A DNA stretch of 17,117 nucleotides from Chloroflexota bacterium. Lineage in GTDB: Bacteria > Chloroflexota > Limnocylindria > Limnocylindrales > CSP1-4. Location of the stretch: positions 1 through 17,117 of the forward strand of contig JAJYGO010000090.1 of assembly GCA_021785115.1 (NCBI GenBank). Reading direction: 5' to 3'. The notes under the pieces are model-generated. The model was not told where the DNA came from. It was given only the letters and a program-made list of their open reading frames with translations, and did not search any database. Positions 4,425 through 17,087 of this stretch are shown here, in pieces (the stretch's first letter is position 1; the number at the start of each line of letters is the position of its first letter). The position numbers and the translations under genes are program-made.

Positions 4425-4837
4425 GCGATTCCACGCCGAGAACGGTGGGGGAGCTGATGCACGGCGACCCCATCGTGGTGCGGGCGGACGCGCCGCTTGC
4501 CGAGGCGGCGCGCCTGCTCGACGAGCACCGCATCCACGGCCTGCCCGTGGTCGACGCGGACGGCGCCCTGGTGGGTGTCGTGAGCCAGACCGACCTGGTC
4601 CGCGCGCGGGCCACGGACCACCTGTGGTCCAGCTGGCCCGGGCTCTCCGTACGGCACCTCATGACCGCTCCCGCCCTCACCTGCCGGACCGACACACCGG
4701 TCCAGGAGGCGATCGGGCTCATGGAGCTGAACCGCGTGCACCGCCTGGTGGTGGTGGACGAGCAGGGACGGCGCCCCGTCGGGATCTTCTCGACGACCGA
4801 CGTCGTCCACCACCTGGTGGGTAGTCGCGATGTCTGA
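4421..4837 (+). CDS. CBS-pair domain protein between the two PFOR halves
   Basis: The 138-residue protein is almost entirely two CBS motifs: residues about 8-63 (GELMHGDPIVVRADAPLAEA through GVVSQTDLV) and about 76-133 (VRHLMTAPALTC through GIFSTTDVVHHLV). CBS pairs usually bind adenine nucleotides (AMP, ATP, NADH, SAM) and regulate a partner; no catalytic or DNA-binding domain is present. The ATG overlaps the preceding stop (ATGA), and a strong AGGAGG at 4408-4413 sits 7 nt upstream. Its own stop overlaps the next ATG by 8 bp. This tight nesting suggests an allosteric or stability factor dedicated to the oxidoreductase, sensing adenylate or redox charge. That role is inference from context; the fold call is firm. 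Confidence 0.88.
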   Translation: MSDSTPRTVGELMHGDPIVVRADAPLAEAARLLDEHRIHGLPVVDADGALVGVVSQTDLVRARATDHLWSSWPGLSVRHLMTAPALTCRTDTPVQEAIGLMELNRVHRLVVVDEQGRRPVGIFSTTDVVHHLVGSRDV

Positions 4838-6512
4838 GCACCTGGTCCCCGTGGTCGAGGCCCCCAGCGGCCCCCTGAGCGAAGAGGAGCACGCGGCGCG
4901 CGCCCAGGCGATGGACATCGCGCCGGTGGTCTTCGACGTGGAGTCGTACGTCGAGGACTTCAACCGATCCGTGGTGGGCGCCTACCGCCGCGGTATCGCG
5001 GACGCCGAGCTCCCGGCGGACGCCGGGGTCGCCCGCAGCATCATCCCGCCCGGCACGGCCGCGGTCCGCGACTTCAGCAACCTCTCGCCGCACATCCCGC
5101 AGTTCGTGGCCGAGGAGTGCGTGGGCTGCATGGCCTGCGTGAGCGCCTGCCCCGACACGGCCATCCTCGCGGTCGCCGTACCGGAGTCGCAGCTCGAACC
5201 GGCCGTCCGCGCGTTCCCCTGGAAGAGCGCGAACGGCGAGGAGATCGCGGAGACGGCCTCTTCGCACTTCGTGCGCACTCGCAAGTACGCGGACGTGCCC
5301 GCGCGCAAGGGCATCGAGCCGGCCATGTTCGGCATCTTCGTCGACCCGCAGCACTGCAAGGGCTGCGCGGAATGCGTGGACGTCTGCAAGGCCGAGGGTC
5401 ACGACGCCCTGATCATGATCGACAAGGTCCAGAGCGAGCCCACCGGCGAGAGCACCCTGGAGCGGTACCGGCGGGACTTCTCGTTCTTCCGGTCCCTGCC
5501 GGTCACCCCGCCCGAGTACCGCAACGAGAAGGCGCTGGCCGACCTGATGCTCGGCGAGCACGCGCTCGGGTACGTGGGCGGCGCCGGGTCGTGCGCCGGC
5601 TGCGGCGAGGCGTCCGCCATCCGCATGCTGGTGGCCGCCACCCGCCAGGTGTACGGCCCCGACTCCATGGGGATCGTGGCCGAGACCGGGTGCAACACGG
5701 TCTACGGCAGCACCTACCCGTTCAACCCGTACCTGGTCCCGTGGACCAACTCGCTCTTCGAGAACGGGCCCGCGGACGCGCTGGGCGTCCGGCTGCGCTG
5801 GGACCAGGCAGGGCACCGGGACCGGCGCCTCTGGGTCTTCGGCGGCGACGGCGCGATGTACGACATCGGCTTCCAGTCGCTGTCGCGCATGGTCGCGTCG
5901 GGAGCGGACATCAAGGTCCTCGTGCTCGACACGCAGGTCTACTCCAACACCGGGGGTCAGTCGTCCACGGCCTCGTTCGGTGGCCAGGTCACCAAGCTCT
6001 CGGCGTTCGGCAAGGCCGTCCACGGCCGACCGGAGCGCCGCAAGGAGCTCGGCCTGATCATGCTGGCGCACCGTGACGTGTACGTGGCCGCGACCACCCC
6101 GGCACACCTCAACCACTTCTACCGCGCCATCATGGAGGCCAACGAGTACCCGGGACCCGCCGTGGTCATCGCGTACACCCCGTGCATGCCCGAGCACGGC
6201 ATCGCGGACGACGCCTCGACCCGCCAGGCGAAGCTCGCGGTCGACTCGCGCGCCTTCCCCCTCTTCACGTACGACCCCCGGCGGGGCGAGACGGTGCATG
6301 AGCGCCTCTCGCTCCAGGGCAACCCGAACGTGAAGGAGGACTGGTCGAAGCTGCCGGACGGCACCACGTTCGACTTCGTGGATTTCGCCAGGACCGAGGG
6401 CCGGTTCGCCCAGCACTTCCGCAACGGGGCGGCGTCGGAAGAGATCCAGGCGACGCGGGCCGAGCGGCTGGAATACTGGCACCAGCTCCAGGAGCTCGCC
6501 GGAGTCCGCTGA
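4830..6512 (+). CDS. Pyruvate:ferredoxin oxidoreductase-type protein, C-terminal half (2[4Fe-4S] plus TPP-binding domain; NifJ domains IV-VI)
   Basis: The 560-residue protein starts with a linker region (1-95) like NifJ domain IV. A ferredoxin domain follows, with cluster ligands C97, C100, C103, C107 (CVGCMACVSACP) and C176, C179, C182, C186 (CKGCAECVDVCK). The TPP-binding domain begins near 250: the catalytic cluster is marked by C255 and C258 (CAGC), C288 (ETGC) and C452 (PC); the TPP/Mg motif runs from GGDGAMYDIG at 338-347 to YSNTGGQSS at 371-379. It catalyses decarboxylation on TPP and passes electrons through three [4Fe-4S] clusters to ferredoxin, but needs the alpha-gamma partner at 2451-4424. 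NifJ is normally a single chain of about 1,170 residues; the two halves here sum to a similar length (1,217). The ATG at 4830 overlaps the CBS gene by 8 bp and a weak GGTGGG lies upstream. The operon ends here. Confidence 0.9.
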   Translation: MSEHLVPVVEAPSGPLSEEEHAARAQAMDIAPVVFDVESYVEDFNRSVVGAYRRGIADAELPADAGVARSIIPPGTAAVRDFSNLSPHIPQFVAEECVGCMACVSACPDTAILAVAVPESQLEPAVRAFPWKSANGEEIAETASSHFVRTRKYADVPARKGIEPAMFGIFVDPQHCKGCAECVDVCKAEGHDALIMIDKVQSEPTGESTLERYRRDFSFFRSLPVTPPEYRNEKALADLMLGEHALGYVGGAGSCAGCGEASAIRMLVAATRQVYGPDSMGIVAETGCNTVYGSTYPFNPYLVPWTNSLFENGPADALGVRLRWDQAGHRDRRLWVFGGDGAMYDIGFQSLSRMVASGADIKVLVLDTQVYSNTGGQSSTASFGGQVTKLSAFGKAVHGRPERRKELGLIMLAHRDVYVAATTPAHLNHFYRAIMEANEYPGPAVVIAYTPCMPEHGIADDASTRQAKLAVDSRAFPLFTYDPRRGETVHERLSLQGNPNVKEDWSKLPDGTTFDFVDFARTEGRFAQHFRNGAASEEIQATRAERLEYWHQLQELAGVR

Positions 6513-6665: not shown

Positions 6666-7259
6666 TCAGACGGGCGTGGCGGACTCCTCGACGGCCGGCC
6701 GATCCGTGAGCTGCCCGGTCCCGGACGCCACCGCGGCCATGCCGAGGTCGAAGGCGCGCAGGTCCACGACCAGGGCCTCCGGCCGTTTCTTCCCCACGAT
6801 GGCGTGCAGTGCCTCGCGGATCCGGTCCGGGGGCACGATCCCCGTCCGGGCCACGAGGGCGCCGAGCGCCACCACGTTGATGAGCCGGTCGTCCCCGGCC
6901 TCGCGGGCGAGCGGGGTGCACCGCACCCGGATCTCGTCGAGATCGTCCCGGCCCGACGGCGCCTCCACCAGCGAGTCGTTCACGATGAGGACGCCGCCGG
7001 GGGCCACCATCGGACCGAACTTGGCGAGGGACGGGGGGTTGAAGACCACCGCCACGTCGGGGTGATCGACGATCGGCGAGCCGATCGGCTCGTCACCCAC
7101 GATGACGGTGCAGGAGGCAGTGCCGCCGCGCATCTCGGGCCCGTACGAGGGGATCCAGATGACCTCGGCGCCGGCGTTCATGGCGGCCTCGGCGAGGACG
7201 TGCCCTGCGAACAGGATCCCCTGGCCGCCGAAGCCGGCGAACACGATCGAGCGTTCCAT
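6666..7259 (-). CDS. 2-oxoacid:ferredoxin oxidoreductase, gamma subunit (Vor/Kor type)
   Basis: The 197-residue product begins with the gamma-subunit Rossmann-like loop GFGGQG at 9-14 and carries the family block PSYGPEMRGGTASC at 37-50; length is typical (about 180-200). In this superfamily gamma helps bind CoA and closes the active site between alpha and beta. It is the last gene of the δ-α-β-γ cluster. A GGAGG lies about 11 nt before the ATG, and 6 bp separate it from the beta stop. The tail after about 180 is poorly conserved. Transcription ends at the hairpins just downstream. Confidence 0.9.
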   Translation of the reverse strand: MERSIVFAGFGGQGILFAGHVLAEAAMNAGAEVIWIPSYGPEMRGGTASCTVIVGDEPIGSPIVDHPDVAVVFNPPSLAKFGPMVAPGGVLIVNDSLVEAPSGRDDLDEIRVRCTPLAREAGDDRLINVVALGALVARTGIVPPDRIREALHAIVGKKRPEALVVDLRAFDLGMAAVASGTGQLTDRPAVEESATPV

Positions 7260-7265
7260 GCTCTT

Positions 7266-8114
7266 CTAAGCCTCCTGCCCCGCCGGCCGGTTCTCCGCGT
7301 GACGGGCCGTGCCGGGCGGCGTGCCAGGCCGCGCGGCGCCGGACTGCGCGCCGGCCCTCCGATCGGCCAGGACGCCGAGCGGGTACGTCTGCACCACGAC
7401 GTCCTGCAGGTAGCGGATCGACTCCTGCGCGGTCATGCCCCAGCCCACGGGGCAGTTGGAGAGCACCTCGACGACGGCGAACCCCTCGCCCCGGATCTGC
7501 GCCTCGCAGGCCTTGCGGATGTAGGCCTTCGTCTTGCCGATCGCGGAGGGATCGGCGATCGAACCCCGTGCGGCGAAGGCCACGCCGGGCAGCACGGCGA
7601 GCATCTCGGTCATCGGCACGGGGTAGCCCGCCGCGCGGACGTCCCGGCCGGTGGGCGAGGACGTGGTCCGCTGCCCGACCAGCGTGGTCGGGGCCATCTG
7701 GCCGCCGGTCATCCCGTAGATCCCGTTGTTGACGAAGATCGCGGTGATCAGCTCGCCGCGCGCCGCGGCGTGGACGATCTCGCCGGTGCCGATCGCCGCG
7801 AGATCGCCGTCCCCCTGGTAGGTGAGGACGAACGCATCGGGGCGGACGCGACGGATCCCCGTCGCCACCGCCGGCGCCCGACCGTGCGGGGCCTCGCACC
7901 AGTCGTACCCCAGGTACTCGTAGGCGAAGACCGAGCAGCCGACGGGCGCGACCGCGATGGTGCGCCCGTCCACCCCCAGGTCCTCGAGGACCTCCGCGAC
8001 GAGACGGTGGATGATCCCGTGCCCGCACCCGGGGCAGTACCGCGTCGAGACGTCGGTCAGGCGAGCCGGGCGCTGGTAGATGACCCGCGGCGCTGCGGGG
8101 ACGGTCGCGGTCAT
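7266..8114 (-). CDS. 2-oxoacid:ferredoxin oxidoreductase, beta subunit (TPP-binding)
   Basis: The 282-residue product is the thiamine-pyrophosphate subunit. Cluster cysteines typical of the family are C27 and C30 (CPGC), C60 (PVGCS) and C221 (NCPVG). The TPP/Mg motif runs from QGDGDLAAIG at 100-109 to NNGIYGMTGGQ at 129-139. It decarboxylates the 2-oxoacid with the alpha subunit and passes electrons to the delta ferredoxin. The start overlaps the alpha stop as ATGA (8111-8114). The last 30 or so residues (RRAGAQSGAARPG onward) are low-complexity and beyond the usual end of the subunit. Confidence 0.92.
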   Translation of the reverse strand: MTATVPAAPRVIYQRPARLTDVSTRYCPGCGHGIIHRLVAEVLEDLGVDGRTIAVAPVGCSVFAYEYLGYDWCEAPHGRAPAVATGIRRVRPDAFVLTYQGDGDLAAIGTGEIVHAAARGELITAIFVNNGIYGMTGGQMAPTTLVGQRTTSSPTGRDVRAAGYPVPMTEMLAVLPGVAFAARGSIADPSAIGKTKAYIRKACEAQIRGEGFAVVEVLSNCPVGWGMTAQESIRYLQDVVVQTYPLGVLADRRAGAQSGAARPGTPPGTARHAENRPAGQEA

Positions 8115-9481
8115 CGGGTGCCTCCTTCGTCGCCGTGGCGCCGCTCTGCCGACCCGTTGCGCCCGTGACCCCGACCGCGGCCGTTGCGCGTGGGGTGGGT
8201 CGGGACCGGAACCGTGTACCAGTGCGGCATCCAGGCGTCGTCGCCGAAGATGCTCAGGGCATCGTGGCCCGTCTCCGGCTCCGCCATCGGCTCGTGCGGG
8301 TGCATGTGGTCGGCGCCCGAGACGGGGATGGGCGGCCGGCGACGGACGCGCCTGGCCCGCCGCGAGGAGCCCGTGGCGTCCAGCTCCCGGAGCGCCTCCA
8401 CCACCTCGTCCGGCGAGGGCACCATGCCCCCCGTGCGGCCCTCGAACGCGACCGGGACCTTCCCCGCCACCGCGAGGCGCACATCCTCGACCATCTGGCC
8501 GGCCGAGAGCTCGACCACCAGCAGCCCTCGCGTGCGATCCGCCACGCCGGCCAGCTCGGCCGAGGGGAACGGCCAGAGCGAGATCGGCCGGAAGAGGCCC
8601 ACCCGCAGCCCGGCCGCACGTGCCCGCGCGATGGCGGTGCGTGCCACGCGGGCCGCCGTCCCGTAGGCCACGATCACGAGATCCGCGTCGTCGAGCCGCT
8701 CGCCCGCCCAGCGGACCTCGTGCTCGGCGATCGCGCGGAACTTCTCCTGGAGGTGCGCGTTGTGCTCCTCCAGCTCCTCCGGCGCGAGATGGAGCGAGCG
8801 CACGACCCGCGGCTCGCGGCCGTCCGCGCCGGTCAGGGCCCAGGAGGCCGTCTGACGCGGCGGGGTGCGGTAGTGCTGCTCGACCGGCTCCATCGCCTGC
8901 CCCATGATCCCGTCGGCGAGGATGATCACGGGGGTGCGGTAGTGCTCGGCGAGCTCGAACGCCGTGGCGACCATCTCCATCGCCTCGCCGAGGGACGAGG
9001 GGGCGAGGACGGGCACCCGGTAGTCGCCGTGGCCGTGGCCCTTCACGGCCTGGAAGTAGTCACTCTGGGAGGGGCCGATGCTGCCGAGGCCCGGCCCGCC
9101 GCGCATCACGTTGATGAGCACCATGGGGACCTCGGAGCCCGCCATGTAGCTCATCGCCTCCGCCATGAGGCTGACGCCCGGTCCCGACGAGGAGACGAGG
9201 ACGCGGGCACCGGCGGCGCCGGCGCCGAGGGCCATGTTGATGGCGCCCAGCTCGCTCTCGGCCTGGACGAACGCGCGGCCTTCCTCGGGCATCCGCTTGG
9301 CCATCCACTCGAGGAGCTCGGCCTGGGGGGTGATGGGATAGCCGAAGTACGCGTCGCACCCGGCCTGGATCGCCGCCTCGGCGATCGCCTCGTTGCCTTT
9401 CATCAGGACGCGGCGAGGGGGCTCGCGCGTCCCTGCTAACGAGAAGGAGGGGTCCTCCACGGGCGGGGGGACGGTGGTCAT
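8111..9481 (-). CDS. vorB: 2-oxoacid:ferredoxin oxidoreductase, alpha subunit (VorB-like) with C-terminal extension
   Basis: From the ATG at 9479-9481 the product is 456 residues. That start overlaps the delta stop (ATGA) and has AAGGAG about 8 nt upstream. An open frame extends further upstream but only runs through the ferredoxin gene. Residues 25-370 match the VorB-type alpha subunit: MKGNEAIAEAAI at 27-38, FGYPITPQAEL at 46-56, QAESELGAINM at 73-83, SSSGPGVSLMAE at 97-108 and INVMRGGPGLGSIGPSQSDY at 123-142. The segment GHGHGDYR (148-155) is also typical. The family oxidises branched-chain 2-oxoacids (3-methyl-2-oxobutanoate) or 2-oxoglutarate to acyl-CoA, and the substrate here is not certain. 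Residues about 373-456 are an Arg-, His- and Pro-rich extension not expected in VorB proteins of about 350-380 residues. Confidence 0.9.
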   Translation of the reverse strand: MTTVPPPVEDPSFSLAGTREPPRRVLMKGNEAIAEAAIQAGCDAYFGYPITPQAELLEWMAKRMPEEGRAFVQAESELGAINMALGAGAAGARVLVSSSGPGVSLMAEAMSYMAGSEVPMVLINVMRGGPGLGSIGPSQSDYFQAVKGHGHGDYRVPVLAPSSLGEAMEMVATAFELAEHYRTPVIILADGIMGQAMEPVEQHYRTPPRQTASWALTGADGREPRVVRSLHLAPEELEEHNAHLQEKFRAIAEHEVRWAGERLDDADLVIVAYGTAARVARTAIARARAAGLRVGLFRPISLWPFPSAELAGVADRTRGLLVVELSAGQMVEDVRLAVAGKVPVAFEGRTGGMVPSPDEVVEALRELDATGSSRRARRVRRRPPIPVSGADHMHPHEPMAEPETGHDALSIFGDDAWMPHWYTVPVPTHPTRNGRGRGHGRNGSAERRHGDEGGTR

Positions 9482-9762
9482 CGCGAGGTCTCCTTCGGCG
9501 CCGCGAACACGGTGAAGACCGCGTCCGGGCATACCCGTGCGCAGAACGCGCAGCTGGTGCAGGCCGCAGCGTCGGTGAGCTGCACCGGGTGGTAACCGAG
9601 CCGGTTGACGGTGCCCTGATCGAGCGCGAGGCAGGACTTGGGGCACGCCGCCACGCACAGCTCGCAGCCCTTGCAGCGGTCGCTCGCGATCACGAGCGGC
9701 GACCAGGGGACCGGGGCGGGCACGAGCCCGATGCGCGACGGCGCCGGCAACGAGAGCGTCAT
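9478..9762 (-). CDS. 2-oxoacid:ferredoxin oxidoreductase, delta subunit (2[4Fe-4S] ferredoxin)
   Basis: The 94-residue protein has two classical 4Fe-4S motifs: C30, C33, C36, C40 (CKGCELCVAACP) and C68, C71, C74, C78 (CTSCAFCARVCP). It carries electrons from the beta-subunit cluster to external ferredoxin. The ATG at 9760-9762 is preferred to the one at 9777, because GGAGG lies inside the first codons after 9777, 7-8 nt before the chosen ATG. It is the first gene of the vor cluster (δ-α-β-γ, the order common in VorB-type operons), and its stop overlaps the vorB start. A 210-bp gap separates it from the hdr operon. Confidence 0.9.
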   Translation of the reverse strand: MTLSLPAPSRIGLVPAPVPWSPLVIASDRCKGCELCVAACPKSCLALDQGTVNRLGYHPVQLTDAAACTSCAFCARVCPDAVFTVFAAPKETSR

Positions 9763-9880
9763 GAAACACGCCTCCATTGCGGAACTGGTCTCCCGAGCCT
9801 CTCCCCGGCTCCGGGGGACCGCAAGGGCCGAACGGGGGGATGATGGCGGGCGGCCACGCCATGCGGCCCGGGAGCGCGGT

Positions 9881-9972: not shown

Positions 9973-11148
9973 TCAGCGGGCGGCGTTGGCCTTGTCTCCC
10001 GCCAGCGAGTAGAAGAAGAGTGCCACGGGCCGGTAGACGGCGTGGGCGAACTTCATGAACGGGGCCAGCAGGACCAGCTCCATGGCCACCGAGACGTGGA
10101 AGAGGAAGACCCAGTAGCCCCAGGCCGGGGCCTGCGGAAGGTACAGCGCGATCTCGATGAGGAAGCCGGTCAGGCCGGTGATCCAGAGGAGCACGAGCAG
10201 GGTCCAGTCCGACGCCGTCGAGTCGGAGGCGGCGCGGTTGGCCTTGCGAAGCCGGTCCAGGATCAGCATCGAGGTCCCGTAGAGGAGGAACAGGCCCGCC
10301 ACCGTCCCCAGCAGCCGGACGGGGTACCAGATCGGGACGGGCGTCCCGGTGGCCTTGATCCCCACCACGGCGAGGCCGTAGTCGAGGACGGTGGCCGCCA
10401 GGAGGCCCAGGAAGCCCCACATCGTCGACGCGTGGATGAACCAGCGGCGCCGATACCAGGGCTGCTCCGCCTGCACCGACTCACAGTCCGTTCGGAACCG
10501 CAGCTGGCCGAGCGACTCGACCGCGAGCGCGCTCCAGAGCGCGCGTCCCGATCTCGCCAGCGCGGCCCTGCTGCCCACCACGTCGCGGACCGAGATTCCT
10601 TCTCGCCTGGAGATGCCGCGGGCCATGCCGACGACGCCGGCGAGACCGGCCAGGAAGACCAGGATCATGACGACGACGCCGGTGTTGTGGATGAGCGCCT
10701 CCGGGATGAACCCGAAGAGGTTGAGCGAGGTGGTGCTCTGCACGCCGTGGGAGGCGTACATGAAGAGGGCGAAGAACGCTGCCAGCAGGATGGCGATCAC
10801 GGAGCCCGCGAGCGGGCTCGTGTACATGGTGCGGGCGAGATGCGTGCGGTCGTAGTTCGCGATCGCGTACCGCCGCGCCGCGGCCATGAAGCCGCCCGGG
10901 TCAGCCTGGGTGGGGCAGGTGTCGGAGCACTCCCCGCAGTGGTAGCAGGTCCAGAGCTCCTTGCTCCCCAGGAGCGCGTCCTTCATCCCCACCTGGGCGT
11001 AGCGGATCAGCCGGCGGGGGAAGGTGCCGTCGTTGTCGGAGAGCGGGCAGATCGCGGTGCAGTTGCCGCAGGAGTAGCACGCCGAGACGTCGGCGGCCCC
11101 GAACTTCTGCACGTCGGCCAGGAGGCCGGCGTCCACCAGCGCGCTCAT
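9973..11148 (-). CDS. QmoC-like / HdrC-HdrE fusion: iron-sulfur and membrane cytochrome-b-type subunit
   Basis: The 391-residue product has an N-terminal HdrC-like domain with two 4Fe-4S motifs: C24, C27, C30, C34 (CYSCGNCTAICP) and C68, C71, C74, C78 (CYHCGECSDTCP). The membrane part has about six hydrophobic segments: near 113-132, 154-175, 237-258, 276-298, 315-337 and 344-365. Histidines at 154, 239, 351 and 369 are candidate heme b ligands, as in NarI/HdrE-type subunits. QmoC of sulfate reducers has this same HdrC-HdrE fusion and exchanges electrons with menaquinone. Here it would dock the HdrA proteins to the membrane. Its ATG overlaps the winged-helix gene stop as ATGA (11145-11148). 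The family call is firm; quinone specificity and direction of electron flow are inferred. Confidence 0.87.
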   Translation of the reverse strand: MSALVDAGLLADVQKFGAADVSACYSCGNCTAICPLSDNDGTFPRRLIRYAQVGMKDALLGSKELWTCYHCGECSDTCPTQADPGGFMAAARRYAIANYDRTHLARTMYTSPLAGSVIAILLAAFFALFMYASHGVQSTTSLNLFGFIPEALIHNTGVVVMILVFLAGLAGVVGMARGISRREGISVRDVVGSRAALARSGRALWSALAVESLGQLRFRTDCESVQAEQPWYRRRWFIHASTMWGFLGLLAATVLDYGLAVVGIKATGTPVPIWYPVRLLGTVAGLFLLYGTSMLILDRLRKANRAASDSTASDWTLLVLLWITGLTGFLIEIALYLPQAPAWGYWVFLFHVSVAMELVLLAPFMKFAHAVYRPVALFFYSLAGDKANAAR

Positions 11149-11399
11149 GCCGGCACCGCCCAGTTCGTCGCCTCGTACCGGAAGTAGCCGTCGTCGGTGG
11201 GGTCCTTGACCTCCCGGATCTTCCCGTACCGCCGCATGCCCATCACCCAGAAGAGCACCTCGTCGGTGGGGCTCCCGATCGCCTCGGCGATCTCGGGCAC
11301 GGTGAGCGGCCCCGAGCGGAGCGCCTCGAGGATTCGCGGATGCATCACTGGTTCCTCGCGGATGATCTCCCGGATCTCCCGGATCGTGGTCGTGCTCAT
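11145..11399 (-). CDS. Small winged-helix-like protein inside the hdr operon
   Basis: The 84-residue protein sits between hdrA and the qmoC-like gene, with ATGA overlaps on both sides (11396-11399 and 11145-11148). Residues 19-60 look like a helix-turn-helix: HPRILEALRSGPLTVPEIAE, then a turn and a second helix (EVLFWVMGMRRYG). A beta-wing-like segment follows (KIREVKDPTDDGYFRYEATN). The longer open frame upstream is only a shadow of hdrA, and the ATG at 11399 is set by the overlap. It has no cysteines and no nucleotide motif. It may regulate the operon, or it may be a structural subunit that borrows the winged-helix fold; the coupling to membrane and flavin subunits favours the latter, which is inference. 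Confidence 0.75.
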   Translation of the reverse strand: MSTTTIREIREIIREEPVMHPRILEALRSGPLTVPEIAEAIGSPTDEVLFWVMGMRRYGKIREVKDPTDDGYFRYEATNWAVPA

Positions 11400-13159
11400 G
11401 CGACCGGCTCCTCCAGCATGGTGTCGATCACGGCCCGGATCTGGGCGTCGGTGTAGCCCCGGAGGTCGATCGCGTCCTCCGGGCAGACGGGCACGCACCC
11501 GCCGCAGCCCTTGCACGTGCTGGGGCTGATCGCCGCGACCGTGCGTCCGGCGACCTCGGCCTTCTCGATCGCCGAGTAGGGGCAGGCGTCGATGCACTTC
11601 TCGCACCAGGTGCATGCCGCGGCGTTGACCTCGGCCACCTGTGGGTCGAGCTCGGCGAAGCCCTTCTTCAGGATCGCCGCGCTCTGGGTGACGGCCGCAA
11701 GTCCCGCTGCCACGCTCTCGGTGGAGTTCTTGGGGCCCTGGCACGCGCCCGCGATCAGCACGCCGTCCACGACCGTCTCGACCGGCCGGAGCTTCGGGTG
11801 GATCTCGTTGAAGAACCCGTCGGTCCCCACCGGCAGCTTCAGGAGCCCCATCAGCTCCTCGTTCTTCCGGGGGACCATCCCGGTGACCAGGACCACCAGG
11901 TCGGCCGGGATCGTCAGCTCCTCGCCGCCGGTGAGCGTGTCGTGCGTGGTGACGGTCAGCTGGCCGCCGTCCGTCCGCGCCACCGAAGGAGGGGTGTCCT
12001 CGGGGAACTTCATGTACACGGAACCGTTCTTGCGGGAGTCCGTGTACATCAGCTCGTACTTGCCGTACGTGCGGATGTCGCGGTAGAGGTGGTACTGGTG
12101 CACCCCGCGGTCCAGCCCCGACACCTGGAGGGCGGCATGGGCCGTGGCCGCGCAGCAGTAGCGCGAGCAGTACTCGTTGGCGCCCGGCTGGCGGCTGCCC
12201 ACGCAATAGATGTAGGCGATGGTCTTCACCGGCCGCCCGTGGTGGACGAGCGGGCCCGACGATGCGTCGATCAGCGCCTTGAACTCGGGCAGCGTCACCA
12301 CGCCGTCGATGCCGTAGCCGTACTCGCCGACCTCCGGCTGGTAGGTGTCGAAGCCGGTGGCCACCACGATCGAGCCGACCTCGACGTGGATGAGCTCGGG
12401 CAGGTCCGAGTTCACCCGGATCGCAGCGACGTAGTTGCCGAAGCTGCCGGACTTGGCCATCAGCTCGGCGTTGGTGAAGACGGTGATGCTGGAGCGCTTC
12501 CGCGCCTCGCCGACGAGGCCGGCGATCAGCTCGCTTCCCCTGCGGTCGTGCGGGTACATCGTGCCGAACCGGCCGACCCACCCGCCGAGCTCCTGCTCCT
12601 TCTCGACGAGGAAGACCTCGAGCCCCACGTCGGCGAGCCCGATGGCGGCCCGCAGCCCGGTGATCCCGCCGCCGACCACCAGCGCCTTCTGGGTGGTCTC
12701 CACCACCAGGGGCTCCAGCGGCGTGGTCAGGCGGGTCCGCGCGATGCCCGCCTTCACCAGGCTGATCGCCTTGTGGGTGGCACCCTCGGGGTTGTCGCCG
12801 TGCGTCCACGAGTCCTGCTCGCGGATGTTGACCTGCGTGTACTGGTACGGGTTGATGCCGGCGCGCTTCGCGACGCCGCGGAACGTGACGGTGTGGAGCT
12901 TCGGGGAGCAGGACGCCACCACGAGCCCGTCCAGGCCGTACTGGTGGATGTCCTCCTCCATGTTCTCCTGGGTCGCGTCCGCGCAGGCGAAGATGGTGTC
13001 CCGCGCCACGATCACGCCGGGCTCATCCTTGATCGCGTCGACGACGCGCTGCACGTCGACGTAGTCGGAGATGTTGCCGCCGCAGTGGCAGACGTAGACG
13101 CCGATCCGCCGCTGCTCTGGCGAGAGCTGGCCGGCCACGGTGGTCTCCTCGCTGTTCAT
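11396..13159 (-). CDS. hdrA: HdrA-like flavin and iron-sulfur protein
   Basis: The 587-residue product is a full HdrA/QmoA-QmoB-type protein. Residues 19-100 carry the N-terminal cysteine domain (C24 and C26 in VCHCGG, C59, C84 in ASCSPKLH). The FAD-binding loop VVGGGITGLRAA is at 161-172. The family motif CVGSRQPG (319-326) is followed by C331, C335 and C336 (CSRYCC). Two 4Fe-4S motifs close the protein: C516, C519, C522, C526 and C549, C552, C555, C559. In Hdr complexes HdrA holds the FAD that bifurcates electrons between ferredoxin and a high-potential acceptor; in Qmo it relays electrons to the quinone subunit. Start and stop overlap both neighbours as ATGA. It should pair with the HdrA-GltD protein as a heterodimer. 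Confidence 0.9.
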   Translation of the reverse strand: MNSEETTVAGQLSPEQRRIGVYVCHCGGNISDYVDVQRVVDAIKDEPGVIVARDTIFACADATQENMEEDIHQYGLDGLVVASCSPKLHTVTFRGVAKRAGINPYQYTQVNIREQDSWTHGDNPEGATHKAISLVKAGIARTRLTTPLEPLVVETTQKALVVGGGITGLRAAIGLADVGLEVFLVEKEQELGGWVGRFGTMYPHDRRGSELIAGLVGEARKRSSITVFTNAELMAKSGSFGNYVAAIRVNSDLPELIHVEVGSIVVATGFDTYQPEVGEYGYGIDGVVTLPEFKALIDASSGPLVHHGRPVKTIAYIYCVGSRQPGANEYCSRYCCAATAHAALQVSGLDRGVHQYHLYRDIRTYGKYELMYTDSRKNGSVYMKFPEDTPPSVARTDGGQLTVTTHDTLTGGEELTIPADLVVLVTGMVPRKNEELMGLLKLPVGTDGFFNEIHPKLRPVETVVDGVLIAGACQGPKNSTESVAAGLAAVTQSAAILKKGFAELDPQVAEVNAAACTWCEKCIDACPYSAIEKAEVAGRTVAAISPSTCKGCGGCVPVCPEDAIDLRGYTDAQIRAVIDTMLEEPVA

Positions 13160-15879
13160 GCCGGCACCTTCACGTTGGCCTGGGTGCGTTCGAGGTGGGC
13201 CGCCACCTGCGCCGCGGCCGCGCCGGCGTGCAGGATCGAGTCCACGATGTCCTTCGCCCCCGCCGCCGTCCCGGCCACGAAGACTCCCGGGATGCTCGTC
13301 ACGCCGGGGTTCAGGTCCTCGTCCGGTTCGGCCACGTAGAAGTACTTGTCCTCGGCCAGCTGCTCCTCGGGGAAGAGCATGGCCGCGTCGCGGTTCGGCT
13401 GGACCCCCACGGCCAGCACCACCAGGTCGTACTCGGCGTCCACCAGCTGGCCGCCGTTCTCGATGTCCTCGTAGCGGAGGATCAGGTCGCCGTTCTCCTT
13501 CTCGGTGATCTTGGCGACCCGGCCCTTGACGTAGGTGGCCCCCATCGACTTCGACTGCTCGTAGAACTCGTCGTAGCGCTTGCCGGCGGCCCGGATGTCC
13601 ATGTAGTGGACGGTGACCTCGGCGAGCGGCAGGGCCCCCATGATCAGCTGGTTCTGCTTGATGGAGTACATGCAGCAGAACTTGGAGCAGAGCGGGTTGT
13701 TGACGGTCTCGTCACGCGAGCCGGTGCAGAGGATGTAGGCGATCCGCTCAGGCACCTTGCCGTCGCTGGGTCGCAGGATCGTGTTGAAGGGCCGCGTCGG
13801 GGCCAGCAGGCGGTCCATCTGCATGCCCGTGATCACGTTGCGGTACTGGCCGAAGCCGTACTGGGGCTTGAGGTCGGCCGCGAAGAGCTTGTAGCCCGTC
13901 GAGACCACCACGGCCCCGACCTCCACGTCGAGCTCCGTGTCGCGGGCCTGCAGGTCGATGCACCCGTCGACCGGGCAGGCGCTGACGCACTCGTGGCAGC
14001 CCGAGCAGACCGCGCAGTCCATGCAGCGGCCGGCCGCCGCCCGCGCCTCCGTCTCGGAGAGCGGTGCCTCGACCTCGCGGAAGTCGCGGGGTGCCGCCTC
14101 GAGCGTCACCGCCTCCGGCGTCGCCGGTCGCAGCGTGTAGACCTTCTGGCGGGCCAGGACCTGCTGCTTGTCCACCACCGGCAGTCGCAGGTCGAAGCCG
14201 TCGAGGATCCCGCCGGTCAGCCAGCGGTCGATCATGTGCGCCGCCCGCCGGCCCTCGCCGACGGCCCGGGTGATGTCGGTGGCGCCGTTCACGACGTCGC
14301 CGGCCGCGAAGATGTAGGGGACGTCCGTCTGGAGCGTCTTCGGGTCGGCCCGAAGCGTGCCCCTGCGCTCGACGCCGATCTGGCTCGCGAAGGCGGCCGT
14401 GTCGGGCGTCATGCCGATGGCGGCGATGATCACGTCGCACCCGATGACGTGCTCGCTGCCGCTGATCGGCGTCGGGCTCCGGCGCCCGGAGGCGTCCGGC
14501 TCGCCGAGCGCCATCCGTACGCAGCGGAGGCCGTTCACCGCGCCGGCGGCGTCGCCGGTCACCTCGACCGGGGCCACCTGGAACGCGAACTGCACGCCTT
14601 CCTTCTCGGCGTCGTCCGCCTCGACGTGGTGCGCCGGCATCTCGGCGCGGCTGCGGCGGTACGCAACCGTCACCGATGCGGCGCCCATGCGGCGGGCCAC
14701 GCGCGATGCATCCATGGCCACGTTGCCGCCGCCGACCACCACGACGCGCTTGCCCGCGAGGTCGACGGTCTCGCCGAGCTTGATCCGGCGCAGGAAGTCG
14801 GTGGCAGCCAGGACGCCCATGCGGTCCTCGCCGGGGACGCCCAGGCCGGTCGAGCGCGGGGTGCCCGTGGCCACCAGGACCGCGTCGTAGCCCTCCGACT
14901 TGAGCGCGGCCAGGTCGCGCACCGGCGAGCTCGTCGCGATCTCGACGCCGAGATCCCGGACGTTCTGGATGTCGCGCTCGACGACCTCGACCGGCAGGCG
15001 GTACGACGGGATGGCCAGGCGGAGGAAGCCGCCCGGCTCCGGAGCCGCCTCGTAGATCTTGACCGTGTAGCCCTTGCGGGCGAGCTGCCAGGCGGCGGTG
15101 AGCCCGGCCGGGCCGGACCCCACCACGGCGACCCGCCGGCCGTTGGGCTCGGCGACCTCGATGCCCAGATCCTCGCCGGACTCCACGTGGCGGTCCGAGA
15201 TGAAGCGCTTCAGCCGCCGGATGGGGAGGGTCCCCTCGAGGGATCCGCGCGTGCAGTCGGACTCGCAGGGGGCGTAGCAGGCGCGGCCCAGTGACCCGAC
15301 CAGCGGGGTGGCGTCCAGCACCAGCCGGTGTGCCTTCTCGTACTCGCCGCTGCGGATCAGGGAGACGTACCCGTGGGCCTCGATCCCCGCCGGGCACGCG
15401 AACGTGCAGGGCGACGAGCCCTGCCGGTCGATCACGGCCTTCTTCGGCACGGCCTGGGGGAAGGCGATGTACGCCGCGCGGCGCGCGACGAGATCCGCGT
15501 TGAACTGGTCGGGCACGGCCACGGTGCAGGCGGTCTCGCACTGCTGGCAGCCCGTGCAGGCCACCTCGTCCACGTAGCGAGCCTTGCGCTTGACGCTCGC
15601 GCGGAAGTGGCCGTCGGCGTCGCGCCGGATCCCCTTCACCTCGCTGTACGTCATGACGGTGAGGTTGGGGTGGTGGATCGTCGCCGCCATCTTGGGCGTC
15701 GAGATGCAGCTGGCGCAGTCGAGGGTCGGGAAGACCTTGGACAGCAGGATCATCCGCCCGCCGACGCTCGCCTCCTTCTCGACGACGAGCACCTTGTAGC
15801 CCATGTCGCCCAGCTTCAGGGCGGATTCCATCCCCCCGATGCCGCTGCCGACGACGAGCACGTCGTAGTCCATGGTCAT
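13156..15879 (-). CDS. HdrA with an embedded GltD/NfnB-type NAD(P)H:flavin oxidoreductase domain
   Basis: From the ATG at 15877-15879 the product is 907 residues; the longer open frame upstream is only the MvhD gene in another frame. Residues 1-145 are HdrA-like: FAD loop VVGSGIGGMESA at 9-20, C55 and C58 (CASCISTPKM), and a 4Fe-4S motif at C108, C111, C114, C118. Residues about 150-565 are a GltD/NfnB-like module: cysteines C158, C162, C201, C205, C209; FAD loop VVGSGPAGLTAA at 252-263; NAD(P)H loop VVGGGNVAMD at 381-390; YRRSRAEMPA at 407-416, which favours NADPH; and the FAD motif FAAGDVV at 524-530. HdrA sequence resumes with CMDCAVCSGCHECVSACP at 619-636 and CTGSRD/CSKFCC (718-736). It would put an NAD(P)H site into the Hdr core. 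The ATG overlaps the MvhD stop (ATGA 15876-15879). Confidence 0.9.
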   Translation of the reverse strand: MTMDYDVLVVGSGIGGMESALKLGDMGYKVLVVEKEASVGGRMILLSKVFPTLDCASCISTPKMAATIHHPNLTVMTYSEVKGIRRDADGHFRASVKRKARYVDEVACTGCQQCETACTVAVPDQFNADLVARRAAYIAFPQAVPKKAVIDRQGSSPCTFACPAGIEAHGYVSLIRSGEYEKAHRLVLDATPLVGSLGRACYAPCESDCTRGSLEGTLPIRRLKRFISDRHVESGEDLGIEVAEPNGRRVAVVGSGPAGLTAAWQLARKGYTVKIYEAAPEPGGFLRLAIPSYRLPVEVVERDIQNVRDLGVEIATSSPVRDLAALKSEGYDAVLVATGTPRSTGLGVPGEDRMGVLAATDFLRRIKLGETVDLAGKRVVVVGGGNVAMDASRVARRMGAASVTVAYRRSRAEMPAHHVEADDAEKEGVQFAFQVAPVEVTGDAAGAVNGLRCVRMALGEPDASGRRSPTPISGSEHVIGCDVIIAAIGMTPDTAAFASQIGVERRGTLRADPKTLQTDVPYIFAAGDVVNGATDITRAVGEGRRAAHMIDRWLTGGILDGFDLRLPVVDKQQVLARQKVYTLRPATPEAVTLEAAPRDFREVEAPLSETEARAAAGRCMDCAVCSGCHECVSACPVDGCIDLQARDTELDVEVGAVVVSTGYKLFAADLKPQYGFGQYRNVITGMQMDRLLAPTRPFNTILRPSDGKVPERIAYILCTGSRDETVNNPLCSKFCCMYSIKQNQLIMGALPLAEVTVHYMDIRAAGKRYDEFYEQSKSMGATYVKGRVAKITEKENGDLILRYEDIENGGQLVDAEYDLVVLAVGVQPNRDAAMLFPEEQLAEDKYFYVAEPDEDLNPGVTSIPGVFVAGTAAGAKDIVDSILHAGAAAAQVAAHLERTQANVKVPA

Positions 15880-16319
15880 TTCGCTCCTGCCGCCTGCAGC
15901 GCCGCGAGCGTCGCGGAGAACTGCTGGACCTGCCGGGTGAACGGCTCCGCGCAGACCGAGCAGATCGCCGCCATCTTCACGCGCTGCGGATCGTGGCCCA
16001 GCTCGGTCAGCTGGGCCTGGGCCTCGCTGACGATCCGGGCGGCCCGCTTGGCGCAGTCGGGCAGGTAGGCACATTCGTCCCCGTCGGACGCGATGAAGAC
16101 GCCGTCGAAGCCCTGGTCGATGGCGTGGGCGATCCAGGACGGCTTGATCCCGCTGGTGCAGGGGAGGCTGATCACCTCGACGCCCGGCGAGTAATGCATG
16201 TGCTGGCTCCCGGCCAGGTCGATCCCCGGGTCCGAGATGTTGTTCGTTGAGAAGACCAGGATCCGGGGAACGGACCCCGTGTGCTTCTCGTGCACTTCGG
16301 CGGCTGCAACCGCGCTCAT
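15876..16319 (-). CDS. MvhD/FlpD-like small electron-transfer protein with reduced N-terminal cysteine motif
   Basis: The 147-residue protein matches the MvhD ([2Fe-2S], delta-subunit) family: SLPCTSGIKPSWIAHAIDQG at 51-70, FDGVFIASDGDECAYLPDC at 71-89 and AAICSVC at 117-123. MvhD links hydrogenase, formate dehydrogenase or other donors to HdrA; in QmoB it is fused to the C-terminus of an HdrA. Here it stands alone upstream of the HdrA-GltD gene, with an ATGA overlap. The usual Cys-rich N-terminal segment (FCCNWC-like) is replaced by FSTNNISDPG (23-32), so only C54, C83, C89, C120 and C123 remain. Cluster binding may therefore be altered. AGGAGC about 9 nt upstream supports the start. Confidence 0.82.
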   Translation of the reverse strand: MSAVAAAEVHEKHTGSVPRILVFSTNNISDPGIDLAGSQHMHYSPGVEVISLPCTSGIKPSWIAHAIDQGFDGVFIASDGDECAYLPDCAKRAARIVSEAQAQLTELGHDPQRVKMAAICSVCAEPFTRQVQQFSATLAALQAAGAK

Positions 16320-16351
16320 GGGACGGTGCTCCTGCGGCTGGCGGGTGCCGG

Positions 16352-16379
16352 GGCGGGGCGTGATGGGTCGCGCCCCGCC
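16352..16379 (-). other. Hairpin between the tusA-like and mvhD-like genes
   Basis: GGCGGGGCG at 16352-16360 and CGCCCCGCC at 16371-16379 form a perfect 9-bp stem with a 10-nt loop, in the 79-bp gap between the two − strand genes. It may be an attenuator or an mRNA processing or stability element that lets dsrE-tusA be expressed more than the hdr genes. It could also be a weak terminator. Placement is suggestive only. Confidence 0.4.
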
Positions 16380-16398
16380 ATCGGGCCCTTGAGGCGTG

Positions 16399-16665
16399 CT
16401 ACTTGCCGCGGCGAACGAAGACGCGGTCGTACCCCTGGGCGGTGAGATGACCCAGGAACTCGTGGCCCACCTTGCCGGCCCACGCGCCGATGTCGGTCTT
16501 GGTGACGGGATCGCTGGACCAGATCTCGATCACGCTGCCGACCGGCACCGTGCCCATCCCCTTCTTGGCCTCGAGGAGGGGGCCCGGGCAGGCCGCGCCG
16601 CGCGCGTCGATGACCTTCGCCGCCGTGATCGTCTCGAGTTCGTTGTCGGTGAGTGTCGCGGGCAT
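16399..16665 (-). CDS. tusA: TusA-like sulfur carrier protein
   Basis: The 88-residue protein has the TusA signature, with the active cysteine C26 in CPGP (26-29) inside ARGAACPGPLLEAKKGMGTV (21-40). The length and the following beta-alpha-beta layout are typical of the family. TusA proteins carry sulfur as a persulfide on this cysteine for tRNA thiolation, molybdenum cofactor enzymes or dissimilatory sulfur metabolism. Next to DsrE-like and Hdr genes, the dissimilatory or redox role is more likely than tRNA modification. AGGAGG lies 9 nt before the ATG. It is separated from the DsrE-like gene by 50 bp holding a small hairpin. Confidence 0.9.
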   Translation of the reverse strand: MPATLTDNELETITAAKVIDARGAACPGPLLEAKKGMGTVPVGSVIEIWSSDPVTKTDIGAWAGKVGHEFLGHLTAQGYDRVFVRRGK

Positions 16666-16691
16666 GTGCTGTTTCCTCCTGGCGTGTTCGT

Positions 16692-16713
16692 GGGCCGCCC
16701 GGACGGGCGGTCC
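16692..16713 (-). other. Small hairpin between the dsrE-like and tusA-like genes
   Basis: CCGCCCG at 16695-16701 and CGGGCGG at 16704-16710 pair, with GG/CC outside one mismatch (16692-16693 and 16712-16713). It lies immediately after the DsrE-like stop codon (16716-16718) on the − strand. It could be a partial terminator or an mRNA-stabilising element. Confidence 0.35.
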
Positions 16714-16715
16714 GA

Positions 16716-17087
16716 TCAGTAGACGAGTGCGTTGGTCGCGCTGGTGATCTCGGCGACGAACCGGCCCGCCGCCACGACCTCGGCGTTGTCGATGAGCCGG
16801 GTGGACGCGTCGATCTGCCGACCGTTGATGCAGGGCCCGCAGACCAGCAGGCGCCCCCCGAGCTCCCGGTAGTCGTTCATGAGCTTGGCCAGCGGCGGGA
16901 AGCCGCGTGCCTCGACGCCGTCTGCGGCCCCCTTGACGGCCAGCTCGACGCCCGAGGCCTGCAGTCCGATCACGACCTCGACGTCGGAGGCCATCGCGGC
17001 GACCGCCATCACGAACGGGATCGTCGCGGGCTCGGGATCGTCGGGCCCACGGGTGACCATGAGCACGAGCTTCTGCGTGTCGGCCAT
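16716..17087 (-). CDS. DsrE-family sulfur relay protein
   Basis: The 123-residue protein has the DsrE/DsrF-like fold signature: an N-terminal strand (KLVLMVTRG, 6-14), a helix rich in Ala (IPFVMAVAAMASD), then EVVIGLQASGVELAVKGAAD, and the cysteine-bearing loop LLVCGPCINGRQI (80-92) with C83 and C86. DsrE proteins pass persulfide sulfur between carriers such as TusA and partner enzymes; the CxxC pair suggests a persulfide or redox-active site. It is the first − strand gene seen in the window, 50 bp before tusA, with GAGGGAGC upstream of the ATG. The operon may begin here or beyond the right edge, since only 30 bp are visible upstream. Confidence 0.85.
   Translation of the reverse strand: MADTQKLVLMVTRGPDDPEPATIPFVMAVAAMASDVEVVIGLQASGVELAVKGAADGVEARGFPPLAKLMNDYRELGGRLLVCGPCINGRQIDASTRLIDNAEVVAAGRFVAEITSATNALVY

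What the first reader, a model, noticed from the sequence alone, without database searches (positions are those of the whole stretch)
9973..17087. A seven-gene DsrE-TusA-MvhD-HdrA(GltD)-HdrA-wHTH-QmoC module without HdrB: possible new bifurcating quinone-linked complex
The gene order and coupling imply one complex with an NAD(P)H site, flavins, many Fe-S clusters and a membrane QmoC-like subunit. No HdrB (CCG disulfide site), hydrogenase, AprAB or DsrAB is present here, so it is neither a classical Hdr nor a Qmo-Apr system. It may couple ferredoxin and NAD(P)H to (mena)quinone, with a persulfide carrier as donor or acceptor. This is the best candidate in the window for an undescribed system.
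Basis: partly seen in the sequence, partly recalled or inferred. Interest (0 to 1): 0.85.

Follow-up and report, generated by a model that had tools for sequence, protein, structure and literature searches.

The report
Sulfur-carrier-linked Hdr/Qmo-like membrane redox operon
A conserved set of bacterial genes appears to build a membrane enzyme that links sulfur bound to carrier proteins with NADP(H) and menaquinone, a recombination of known parts that seems not to have been studied.

Summary
DsrE, TusA, MvhD, a GltD-inserted HdrA, a second HdrA, a winged-helix protein and a QmoC-like protein lie in that order on the minus strand, the last five joined by 4-base overlaps. The source is Chloroflexota; the nearest held MAG has a second, 84%-identical copy.
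It is not a one-off. TusA, MvhD, HdrA(GltD), HdrA and wHTH recur together in Chloroflexota, Actinomycetota, Bacillota and others in two forms, ending in QmoC (window form, 34 loci) or in HdrC plus a one-CCG HdrB (19 loci). QmoC thus takes the place of HdrC-HdrB. dsrA and aprA reach cut-off in none of 33 QmoC-form genomes.
The GltD domain splits HdrA's ferredoxin domain. This HdrA keeps the bifurcation lysine; the second HdrA does not. MvhD has an altered, invariant cysteine set. By analogy with Mvh-Hdr I propose that a sulfane-sulfur/sulfide couple meets MvhD, electrons being shared between NADP(H) and menaquinone. Assembly, direction and chemistry are inferred, not shown.
Each part is known (HdrL/type III HdrA, QmoC, the QmoC/HdrBC exchange); my searches of open-licence papers found no description of the combination. 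New variant of a known kind.

The parts
16716..17087 (-). DsrE-family sulfur carrier (123 aa), CGPC motif
   Evidence: PF02635 51.4 bits; Cys83 in 22 of 23 and Cys86 in 21 of 23 aligned homologues (25 found, 2 dropped by length)
16399..16665 (-). TusA sulfur carrier (88 aa)
   Evidence: PF01206 63.3 bits; Cys26 in 61 of 61 loci
15876..16319 (-). MvhD/FlpD-like subunit (147 aa) with altered cysteine set
   Evidence: PF02662 99.5 bits; C54, C83, C89, C120, C123 in 61 of 61 loci and H40 in 60 of 61; the FCCNWC segment of the MvhD-related chain 8rvu_F reads FSTNNI here
13156..15879 (-). HdrA with inserted GltD domain (HdrL / type III HdrA), 907 aa; K409 equivalent kept
   Evidence: Lys at the 409 position in 55 of 56 aligned homologues, the other a gap (61 found, 5 dropped by length)
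11396..13159 (-). second HdrA (587 aa), no Lys at the 409 position
   Evidence: NCBIfam HdrA2 470.8 bits, cut-off 1100; 409 position H in 44, Q in 6, A, Y, F in one each of 53 (54 found, 1 dropped by length)
11145..11399 (-). winged-helix protein (84 aa) between HdrA and QmoC
   Evidence: no Pfam match; AF2 model pLDDT 87 and Foldseek MarR/ArsR folds, none at E below 0.001; alignment of 30
9973..11148 (-). QmoC-like subunit (391 aa): HdrC-like N-terminus with two [4Fe-4S] motifs plus NarI-like membrane domain
9478..9777 (-). small ferredoxin-like protein (VorD/PorD type by its cysteine motifs), adjacent to the module, not part of its conserved core
   Evidence: sequence read directly; homologue at 81% beside VorB in L054
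8111..9481 (-). VorB-like subunit of a 2-oxoacid:ferredoxin oxidoreductase, adjacent, not core
   Evidence: NCBIfam PRK07119 515.4 bits, cut-off 399, on the longer ORF 8111-9862; start chosen by codon score
7266..8114 (-). VorA-like (TPP) subunit, by motif and position, adjacent, not core
   Evidence: homologues beside VorB in L045 and L047; no family search run on it
6666..7259 (-). VorC-like (gamma) subunit, by motif and position, adjacent, not core
   Evidence: homologue beside VorA in L047; no family search run on it

Best explanation
A Qmo/Hdr-like, probably electron-bifurcating membrane complex whose mid-potential partner is a sulfane-sulfur/sulfide couple carried by DsrE/TusA. Mapping onto Mvh-Hdr: in the classical complex MvhD brings in mid-potential electrons from hydrogenase, the HdrA FAD splits the pair, the inserted ferredoxin domain of HdrA is the low-potential exit (ferredoxin), and HdrC-HdrB is the high-potential exit (heterodisulfide). 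Here the hydrogenase is replaced by the DsrE/TusA relay docking on a rewired MvhD; the low-potential exit is converted to NADP(H) by a GltD domain inserted in that ferredoxin domain; and the high-potential exit is menaquinone through QmoC (window form) or HdrC-HdrB (sister form). Net, reversible: sulfide plus carrier thiol <-> carrier persulfide, with electrons shared between NADP+ and menaquinone. Shown: gene set, order, overlaps, recurrence, QmoC/HdrCB exchange, GltD insertion site, conserved and lost residues, no dsrA/aprA over cut-off in 33 QmoC-form genomes. Inferred: assembly into one complex, bifurcation, persulfide as partner at MvhD, NADP over NAD, and direction.
For: (1) Exchange: 34 loci have QmoC and 19 have HdrC plus one-CCG HdrB at the end of the core (8 further loci unresolved, 7 of them without HdrA in the fetched DNA); TusA in 34 of 34 and 19 of 19, a DsrE-family gene in 33 of 34 and 18 of 19. 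The sulfur carriers stay when HdrB is gone, so the sulfur site is likely in the shared core. (2) HdrA(GltD) residues 3-158 align to Hdr 142-296 and 624-903 to 292-572: the insert sits between the two cluster motifs of the inserted ferredoxin domain. (3) L103 is the same operon with a 440-aa HdrA lacking GltD, both cluster motifs present. (4) K409 equivalent in 55 of 56 HdrA(GltD), 0 of 53 second HdrA; its role is stated in PMC12054007 (passages). (5) MvhD: five invariant Cys in 61 of 61. (6) GxGxxA in the second Rossmann motif in 54 of 61 rows, no motif found in 7; PMC12054007 reads GxGxxG as NAD-type against GxGxxA. (7) QmoC: four invariant His, NarI-like and HdrC-like parts. (8) dsrA and aprA over cut-off in 0 of 33 QmoC-form, 5 of 19 HdrCB-form and 0 of 2 unresolved genomes (54 of the 60 genomes with the locus were searched).
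Confidence: 0.4

Rival explanations
1. Sulfane-sulfur oxidation to sulfite: the complex is a third machine beside rDsr and sHdr, taking persulfide from TusA/DsrE, oxidising it to sulfite and passing electrons mainly to menaquinone.
For: TusA and DsrE-like carriers are described as the general delivery route into sulfite-generating machineries (PMC6067878, passages); extra DsrE2/TusA/DsrE_2-like genes upstream in L009 and L045; a TauE/SafE-type cluster near 7 of 61 loci, one member checked by Pfam.
Against: No noncubane HdrB site in the QmoC form; no dsrA over cut-off in 33 QmoC-form genomes; no lipoyl-carrier match (GCV_H) in G001 and a single full-length one in each of nine other genomes of its family and in Actinotalea, which I take to be GcvH without proof. 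TauE is not specific to sulfite. No candidate for the sulfite-forming step is evident.
Confidence: 0.25
2. A Fix/Etf-like NAD(P)H:ferredoxin/menaquinone bifurcating dehydrogenase built from HdrA parts; TusA and DsrE tune it or supply sulfur for cluster assembly rather than substrate.
Against: TusA in 61 of 61 loci and a DsrE-family gene in 58 of 61 across several phyla is constant for an accessory; GltD splits the ferredoxin domain.
Confidence: 0.2
3. A menaquinol- and NADPH-dependent persulfide reductase (sulfur respiration or sink), the reductive direction of the best explanation, without bifurcation.
For: A loose cluster of pyridine-nucleotide disulfide oxidoreductases near 14 of 61 loci, of which the one checked (L080) is CoA-disulfide-reductase-like with a rhodanese domain; 49 of 54 genomes searched lack dsrA and aprA over cut-off.
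Against: Menaquinol is a poor reductant for persulfide unless coupled (recalled potentials); K409 equivalent kept.
Confidence: 0.12

Closest known systems
QmoABC and QmoAB-HdrBC (APS reductase-linked complexes)
   Same: Two HdrA-type flavoproteins, MvhD-like domain (recalled), QmoC arm; QmoC and HdrBC exchange in both systems (PMC10504309, passages).
   Different: MvhD is a separate subunit; one HdrA carries GltD; linked to TusA/DsrE, not AprAB; QmoC below the NCBIfam cut-off (205.7 against 300).
HdrL of Desulfobacterium autotrophicum / type III HdrA (GltD-inserted)
   Same: GltD-type domain in HdrA; HdrL encoded beside mvhD (PMC2702500 and PMC12054007, passages).
   Different: HdrL loci carry formate dehydrogenase or DsrABC genes, the archaeal type III is beside mvhADG and read as NAD type; here GxGxxA, TusA/DsrE and a QmoC or HdrCB arm.
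HdrABC-MvhAGD of methanogens
   Same: HdrA fold, four-Cys site and K409 kept in HdrA(GltD); MvhD homologue; HdrC-like domain in QmoC.
   Different: No hydrogenase and no HdrB in the module; MvhD cysteines rearranged; quinone arm added.
sHdr (hdrC1B1A-hyp-hdrC2B2 with LbpA)
   Same: HdrA-like proteins with TusA and DsrE carriers (PMC6067878, passages).
   Different: No HdrB/HdrC pairs and no lipoate-binding protein in the module; has GltD, MvhD and QmoC.
rDsr with DsrL
   Same: An NAD(P)H iron-sulfur flavoprotein used with a DsrE/TusA sulfur relay (PMC7596348, passages; that DsrL is GltD-like is recalled).
   Different: dsrA over cut-off in 0 of 33 QmoC-form genomes.
YTD cluster of sulfur disproportionators
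   Same: tusA and dsrE genes together (PMC12998232, passages).
   Different: No YedE-type gene (PF04143 over cut-off in 1 of 13 genomes searched, a Desulfofundulus); HdrA/QmoC genes are not part of YTD as described.

Membership tests
Qmo complex (QmoABC) | AprAB as partner | tested here: not met
   aprA over cut-off in 0 of 33 QmoC-form genomes; in 5 of 54 in all, each an HdrCB-form genome that also has dsrA. Weak sub-cut-off matches in 43 of 54 were not counted; 5 of 14 control genomes give such weak matches too
Qmo complex (QmoABC) | QmoC by the curated NCBIfam model | tested here: not met
   205.7 bits for the window, 201.9, 173.7, 153.6 for L066, L075, L103; cut-off 300
Qmo complex (QmoABC) | two HdrA-type subunits with a QmoC-type membrane arm | tested here: met
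Qmo complex (QmoABC) | MvhD domain fused to QmoB (recalled) | tested here: not met
   MvhD is a separate gene, 15876-16319
HdrABC-Mvh | HdrB with CCG active site in the operon | tested here: not met
   no CCG domain among the module proteins; in G001 a CCG protein cut by the contig start lies with HdrA and hydrogenase on C288
HdrABC-Mvh | HdrA four-Cys site and K409 at the bifurcating FAD (residue numbers recalled, counted along 9sfi_A) | tested here: met
   both in 55 of 56 HdrA(GltD); the second HdrA keeps the four Cys in 53 of 53 but has Lys in 0 of 53
HdrL / type III HdrA | GltD inserted in the HdrA ferredoxin domain | tested here: met
sHdr | lipoate-binding protein LbpA associated with the cluster | tested here: not met
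   none among the genes of the window, L009 or L045 operons; 0 GCV_H matches in G001 (84% complete), one each in the other 9 genomes of its family searched
sHdr | hdrC1B1A-hyp-hdrC2B2 gene set | tested here: not met
rDsr/Dsr pathway | dsrA | tested here: not met
   0 of 33 QmoC-form genomes over cut-off; 8 further genomes of the 54 have weak sub-cut-off matches, as do 8 of 14 controls
YTD cluster | YedE-type transporter | tested here: not met
   no PF04143 match over cut-off in 12 of 13 genomes
FixABCX/EtfD-type bifurcation | NAD(P)H oxidation split between ferredoxin and quinone | not testable with these tools
   needs purified enzyme

The most novel reading that the evidence does not exclude
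A flavin-based bifurcating enzyme whose mid-potential substrate is a protein-bound persulfide/sulfide couple entering through MvhD, with NADP(H) as low-potential and menaquinone (or, in the sister form, an HdrB site) as high-potential partner: a Dsr-, Apr- and lipoate-independent way of coupling sulfane sulfur to energy conservation, spread across several phyla including one archaeal MAG.
Probability: 0.3. Interest if true: 0.82.

Novelty: new variant of a known kind. Interest (0 to 1): 0.62.

Why it matters
If right, many uncultured Chloroflexota, Actinomycetota and Bacillota in which dsrA and aprA are not found would still handle sulfane sulfur for energy, so surveys built on those markers would miss them. 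The natural exchange of QmoC for HdrCB in one operon separates the sulfur site from the electron exit and makes the role of MvhD and HdrA in sulfur chemistry testable. Isolates with the locus (Actinotalea lenta with the QmoC form; Desulfofundulus thermobenzoicus, Df. thermosubterraneus and Desulfotruncus alcoholivorax with the HdrCB form) give material for it.

Tried and rejected
Classical Hdr with hidden HdrB: rejected, the CCG protein with HdrA and hydrogenase in G001 sits on another contig. Qmo-Apr and Dsr: rejected. sHdr: rejected for the module. YTD: rejected. DsrC as the common carrier: not supported; over cut-off in 8 of 33 QmoC-form and 6 of 19 HdrCB-form genomes, not in G001. Persulfide-sensing ArsR: the first Cys seen in L045 is absent in L046, so I make no claim. 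Conserved-neighbour clustering was crude: several clusters are shadow reading frames on the opposite strand and were ignored, and only one member each of the CoA-disulfide-reductase-like, TauE and CsoR-like clusters was checked. Rfam search of the window at gathering thresholds: nothing. Foldseek of QmoC gave no E <= 0.001; the VIA second look was clearer. No solved structure resembles the window's DsrE by sequence at E 0.001.

Row drops: for residue counts one search used a length filter (HdrA(GltD) 61 to 56, HdrA 54 to 53, QmoC 34 to 33, DsrE 25 to 23; MvhD and TusA none). Five loci (L054, L056, L057, L058, L087) duplicate genomes fetched by handle and were left out of counts. The tree used 56 of 61 HdrA(GltD) rows, quick method, SH-aLRT only, midpoint root. 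Searches covered 54 of the 60 genomes that carry the 61 loci (window and L009 counted as G001); searches covered 13.

Paper searches for the combination: (open-licence PMC only). From their listings I read passages (found by term, not whole texts) of PMC12142623, PMC12998232, PMC4911364, PMC10504309, PMC7596348, PMC2702500, PMC12054007, PMC6397845, PMC5736913, PMC6776052 and PMC6067878; none of those passages describes TusA/DsrE with HdrA(GltD) and QmoC as one cluster. The other listed papers I saw only as listing lines.


Full report
OBSERVATION. The seven genes are present at the coordinates given, on the minus strand, in the order DsrE, TusA, MvhD, HdrA(GltD), HdrA, wHTH, QmoC. MvhD-HdrA(GltD), HdrA(GltD)-HdrA, HdrA-wHTH and wHTH-QmoC each overlap by 4 bases. 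The mechanical ORF list starts HdrA(GltD) too early (13156-16074); I use 13156-15879, where the ATG overlaps the MvhD stop.

SOURCE. The window's own assembly is not held; genome G001 shares 100% of its sampled words. Relatives are named Chloroflexi, some Candidatus Limnocylindrales. G001 holds a second copy: 84% DNA identity over the stretch searched (DsrE to HdrA(GltD)), HdrA(GltD) 90%, HdrA 87%, wHTH 79%, QmoC 90%.

BEYOND THE RIGHT EDGE. The right edge is upstream. In the second copy (L009) the genes before DsrE are, outward, a TusA, DsrE2, another TusA and a DsrE_2-like protein, up to near the contig start; in G008 (L045) DsrE2, TusA, the DsrE_2-like protein and an ArsR-type regulator. 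No hdrB, apr or hydrogenase gene is there. Downstream of QmoC in the window is a 2-oxoacid:ferredoxin oxidoreductase on the same strand; Vor genes follow QmoC on its strand in three non-duplicate loci (window, L045, L047), so it is not part of the conserved core.

DISTRIBUTION. In 61 related genomes, full-length matches occurred in 9 of 37 genomes of the same family (G001, G002, G005, G007, G008, G009, G029, G034, G035), with a split match in a tenth (G010), and I see none among the listed matches of the 24 outside it (the list is cut after the best). A search of 400 genomes of the phylum with the N-terminal 154 residues found 20 at E <= 1e-50: patchy, also within genera. Isolates among them are Actinotalea lenta, Desulfofundulus thermobenzoicus, Desulfofundulus thermosubterraneus and Desulfotruncus alcoholivorax.

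TWO FORMS. With five duplicate loci removed, 61 loci remain including the window and the second copy: 34 with QmoC at the end of the core, 19 with a roughly 100-aa HdrC and a roughly 320-aa HdrB-like protein (one CCG domain by Pfam in L077, the only one tested; its five motif cysteines in 19 of 19), and 8 unresolved, 7 of them without HdrA in the fetched DNA. TusA and MvhD are present in all 61 and a DsrE-family gene in 58. The DsrE-family gene moves: many Actinomycetota QmoC-form loci have DsrE2 between MvhD and HdrA(GltD), and L075 has it between wHTH and QmoC. In a quick tree of 56 HdrA(GltD) rows the QmoC label needs two changes (0 of 500 shuffles as low): 32 QmoC rows share one branch (with 3 unresolved rows) among HdrCB rows, and L075 separately joins an HdrCB group. 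G005, in the same genus as G001, has the HdrCB form. L103 (labelled Paludibacter) has the operon with a 440-aa HdrA lacking GltD; open frames of 440 and 449 aa at G333 and G438 hint at more such cases, not followed.

OTHER SULFUR GENES. dsrA and aprA reach the curated cut-offs in 5 of 54 genomes with the locus, all of the HdrCB form (L077, L078, L081, L083, L086), and in 0 of 33 with the QmoC form. DsrC-family proteins reach cut-off in 14 of 54: 8 of 33 QmoC form and 6 of 19 HdrCB form, which speaks neither clearly for nor against a DsrC partner. GCV_H was searched in 13 genomes: none in G001, one each in the other nine of its family and in Actinotalea, a weak partial match in Propionicimonas and four weak ones in Desulfofundulus. 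PF04143 is over cut-off in 1 of 13. [NiFe]-hydrogenase matches occur in 11 of 13. MAGs are incomplete (G001 84%), so a single absence means little; the consistent absence of dsrA and aprA means more.

MECHANISM. Because TusA, DsrE-family genes and MvhD stay while HdrCB and QmoC exchange, the exchangeable part is best read as the high-potential electron exit, and the sulfur-facing part as the shared core. In Mvh-Hdr, MvhD passes electrons to HdrA and the inserted ferredoxin domain serves ferredoxin (PMC2702500, PMC12054007, passages). Transposed here, MvhD faces the sulfur relay, GltD makes the low-potential exit NADP(H), and QmoC makes the high-potential exit menaquinone. With recalled midpoint potentials a sulfide/persulfide couple lies between NADP and menaquinone, so splitting or joining electrons at the HdrA(GltD) flavin is feasible in either direction. 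I put 0.4 on this, 0.25 on oxidation to sulfite, 0.2 on a Fix-like function and 0.12 on a plain persulfide reductase. CoA-disulfide-reductase-like genes near 14 of 61 loci and TauE-type genes near 7 of 61 (loose clusters, one member of each checked) point in opposite directions and do not decide it.

KNOWN AND NEW. GltD-inserted HdrA is known as HdrL (PMC2702500, passages) and type III HdrA (PMC12054007). [quoted passage not shown] The present operon may be one thing behind that remark; I could not compare sequences. Among the papers listed, the passages I read (11 papers) do not describe the combination; the library holds only open-licence papers. I file it as a new variant of a known kind.

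Noticed in passing
window 2598-6512 (+): A second 2-oxoacid:ferredoxin oxidoreductase: alpha-gamma fusion (2598-4424), CBS-domain protein (4421-4837; domain found on the longer ORF 2567-4837 of the same frame) and a TPP-binding beta subunit with ferredoxin motifs (4830-6512), on the opposite strand to the Vor genes.
   Followed up: no
L012 (G001 contig C288) 1-5945: CCG protein cut by the contig start, HdrA and [NiFe]-hydrogenase in a row in the nearest genome; a further large hydrogenase match lies on C277.
   Followed up: partly
L103:9953-14559: Bacteroidota MAG with the same operon but HdrA without the GltD insert and a distant QmoC; a possible ancestral or reverted form.
   Followed up: partly
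L062, L063, L076, L104: Fen Chloroflexota carry a second operon on the opposite strand (ArsR-type, DsrE_2-like, TusA, DsrE2) and a TauE-type gene several kb from the module.
   Followed up: no
window 11145-11399 and homologues: A winged-helix protein overlaps its neighbours inside an enzyme operon, next to HdrA and before QmoC or HdrC; role unknown.
   Followed up: partly
L077, L078, L081, L096, L070: CsoR/CstR-type repressor genes (cluster; PF02583 checked in L078 only) near the locus, four of the five in the HdrCB form.
   Followed up: no
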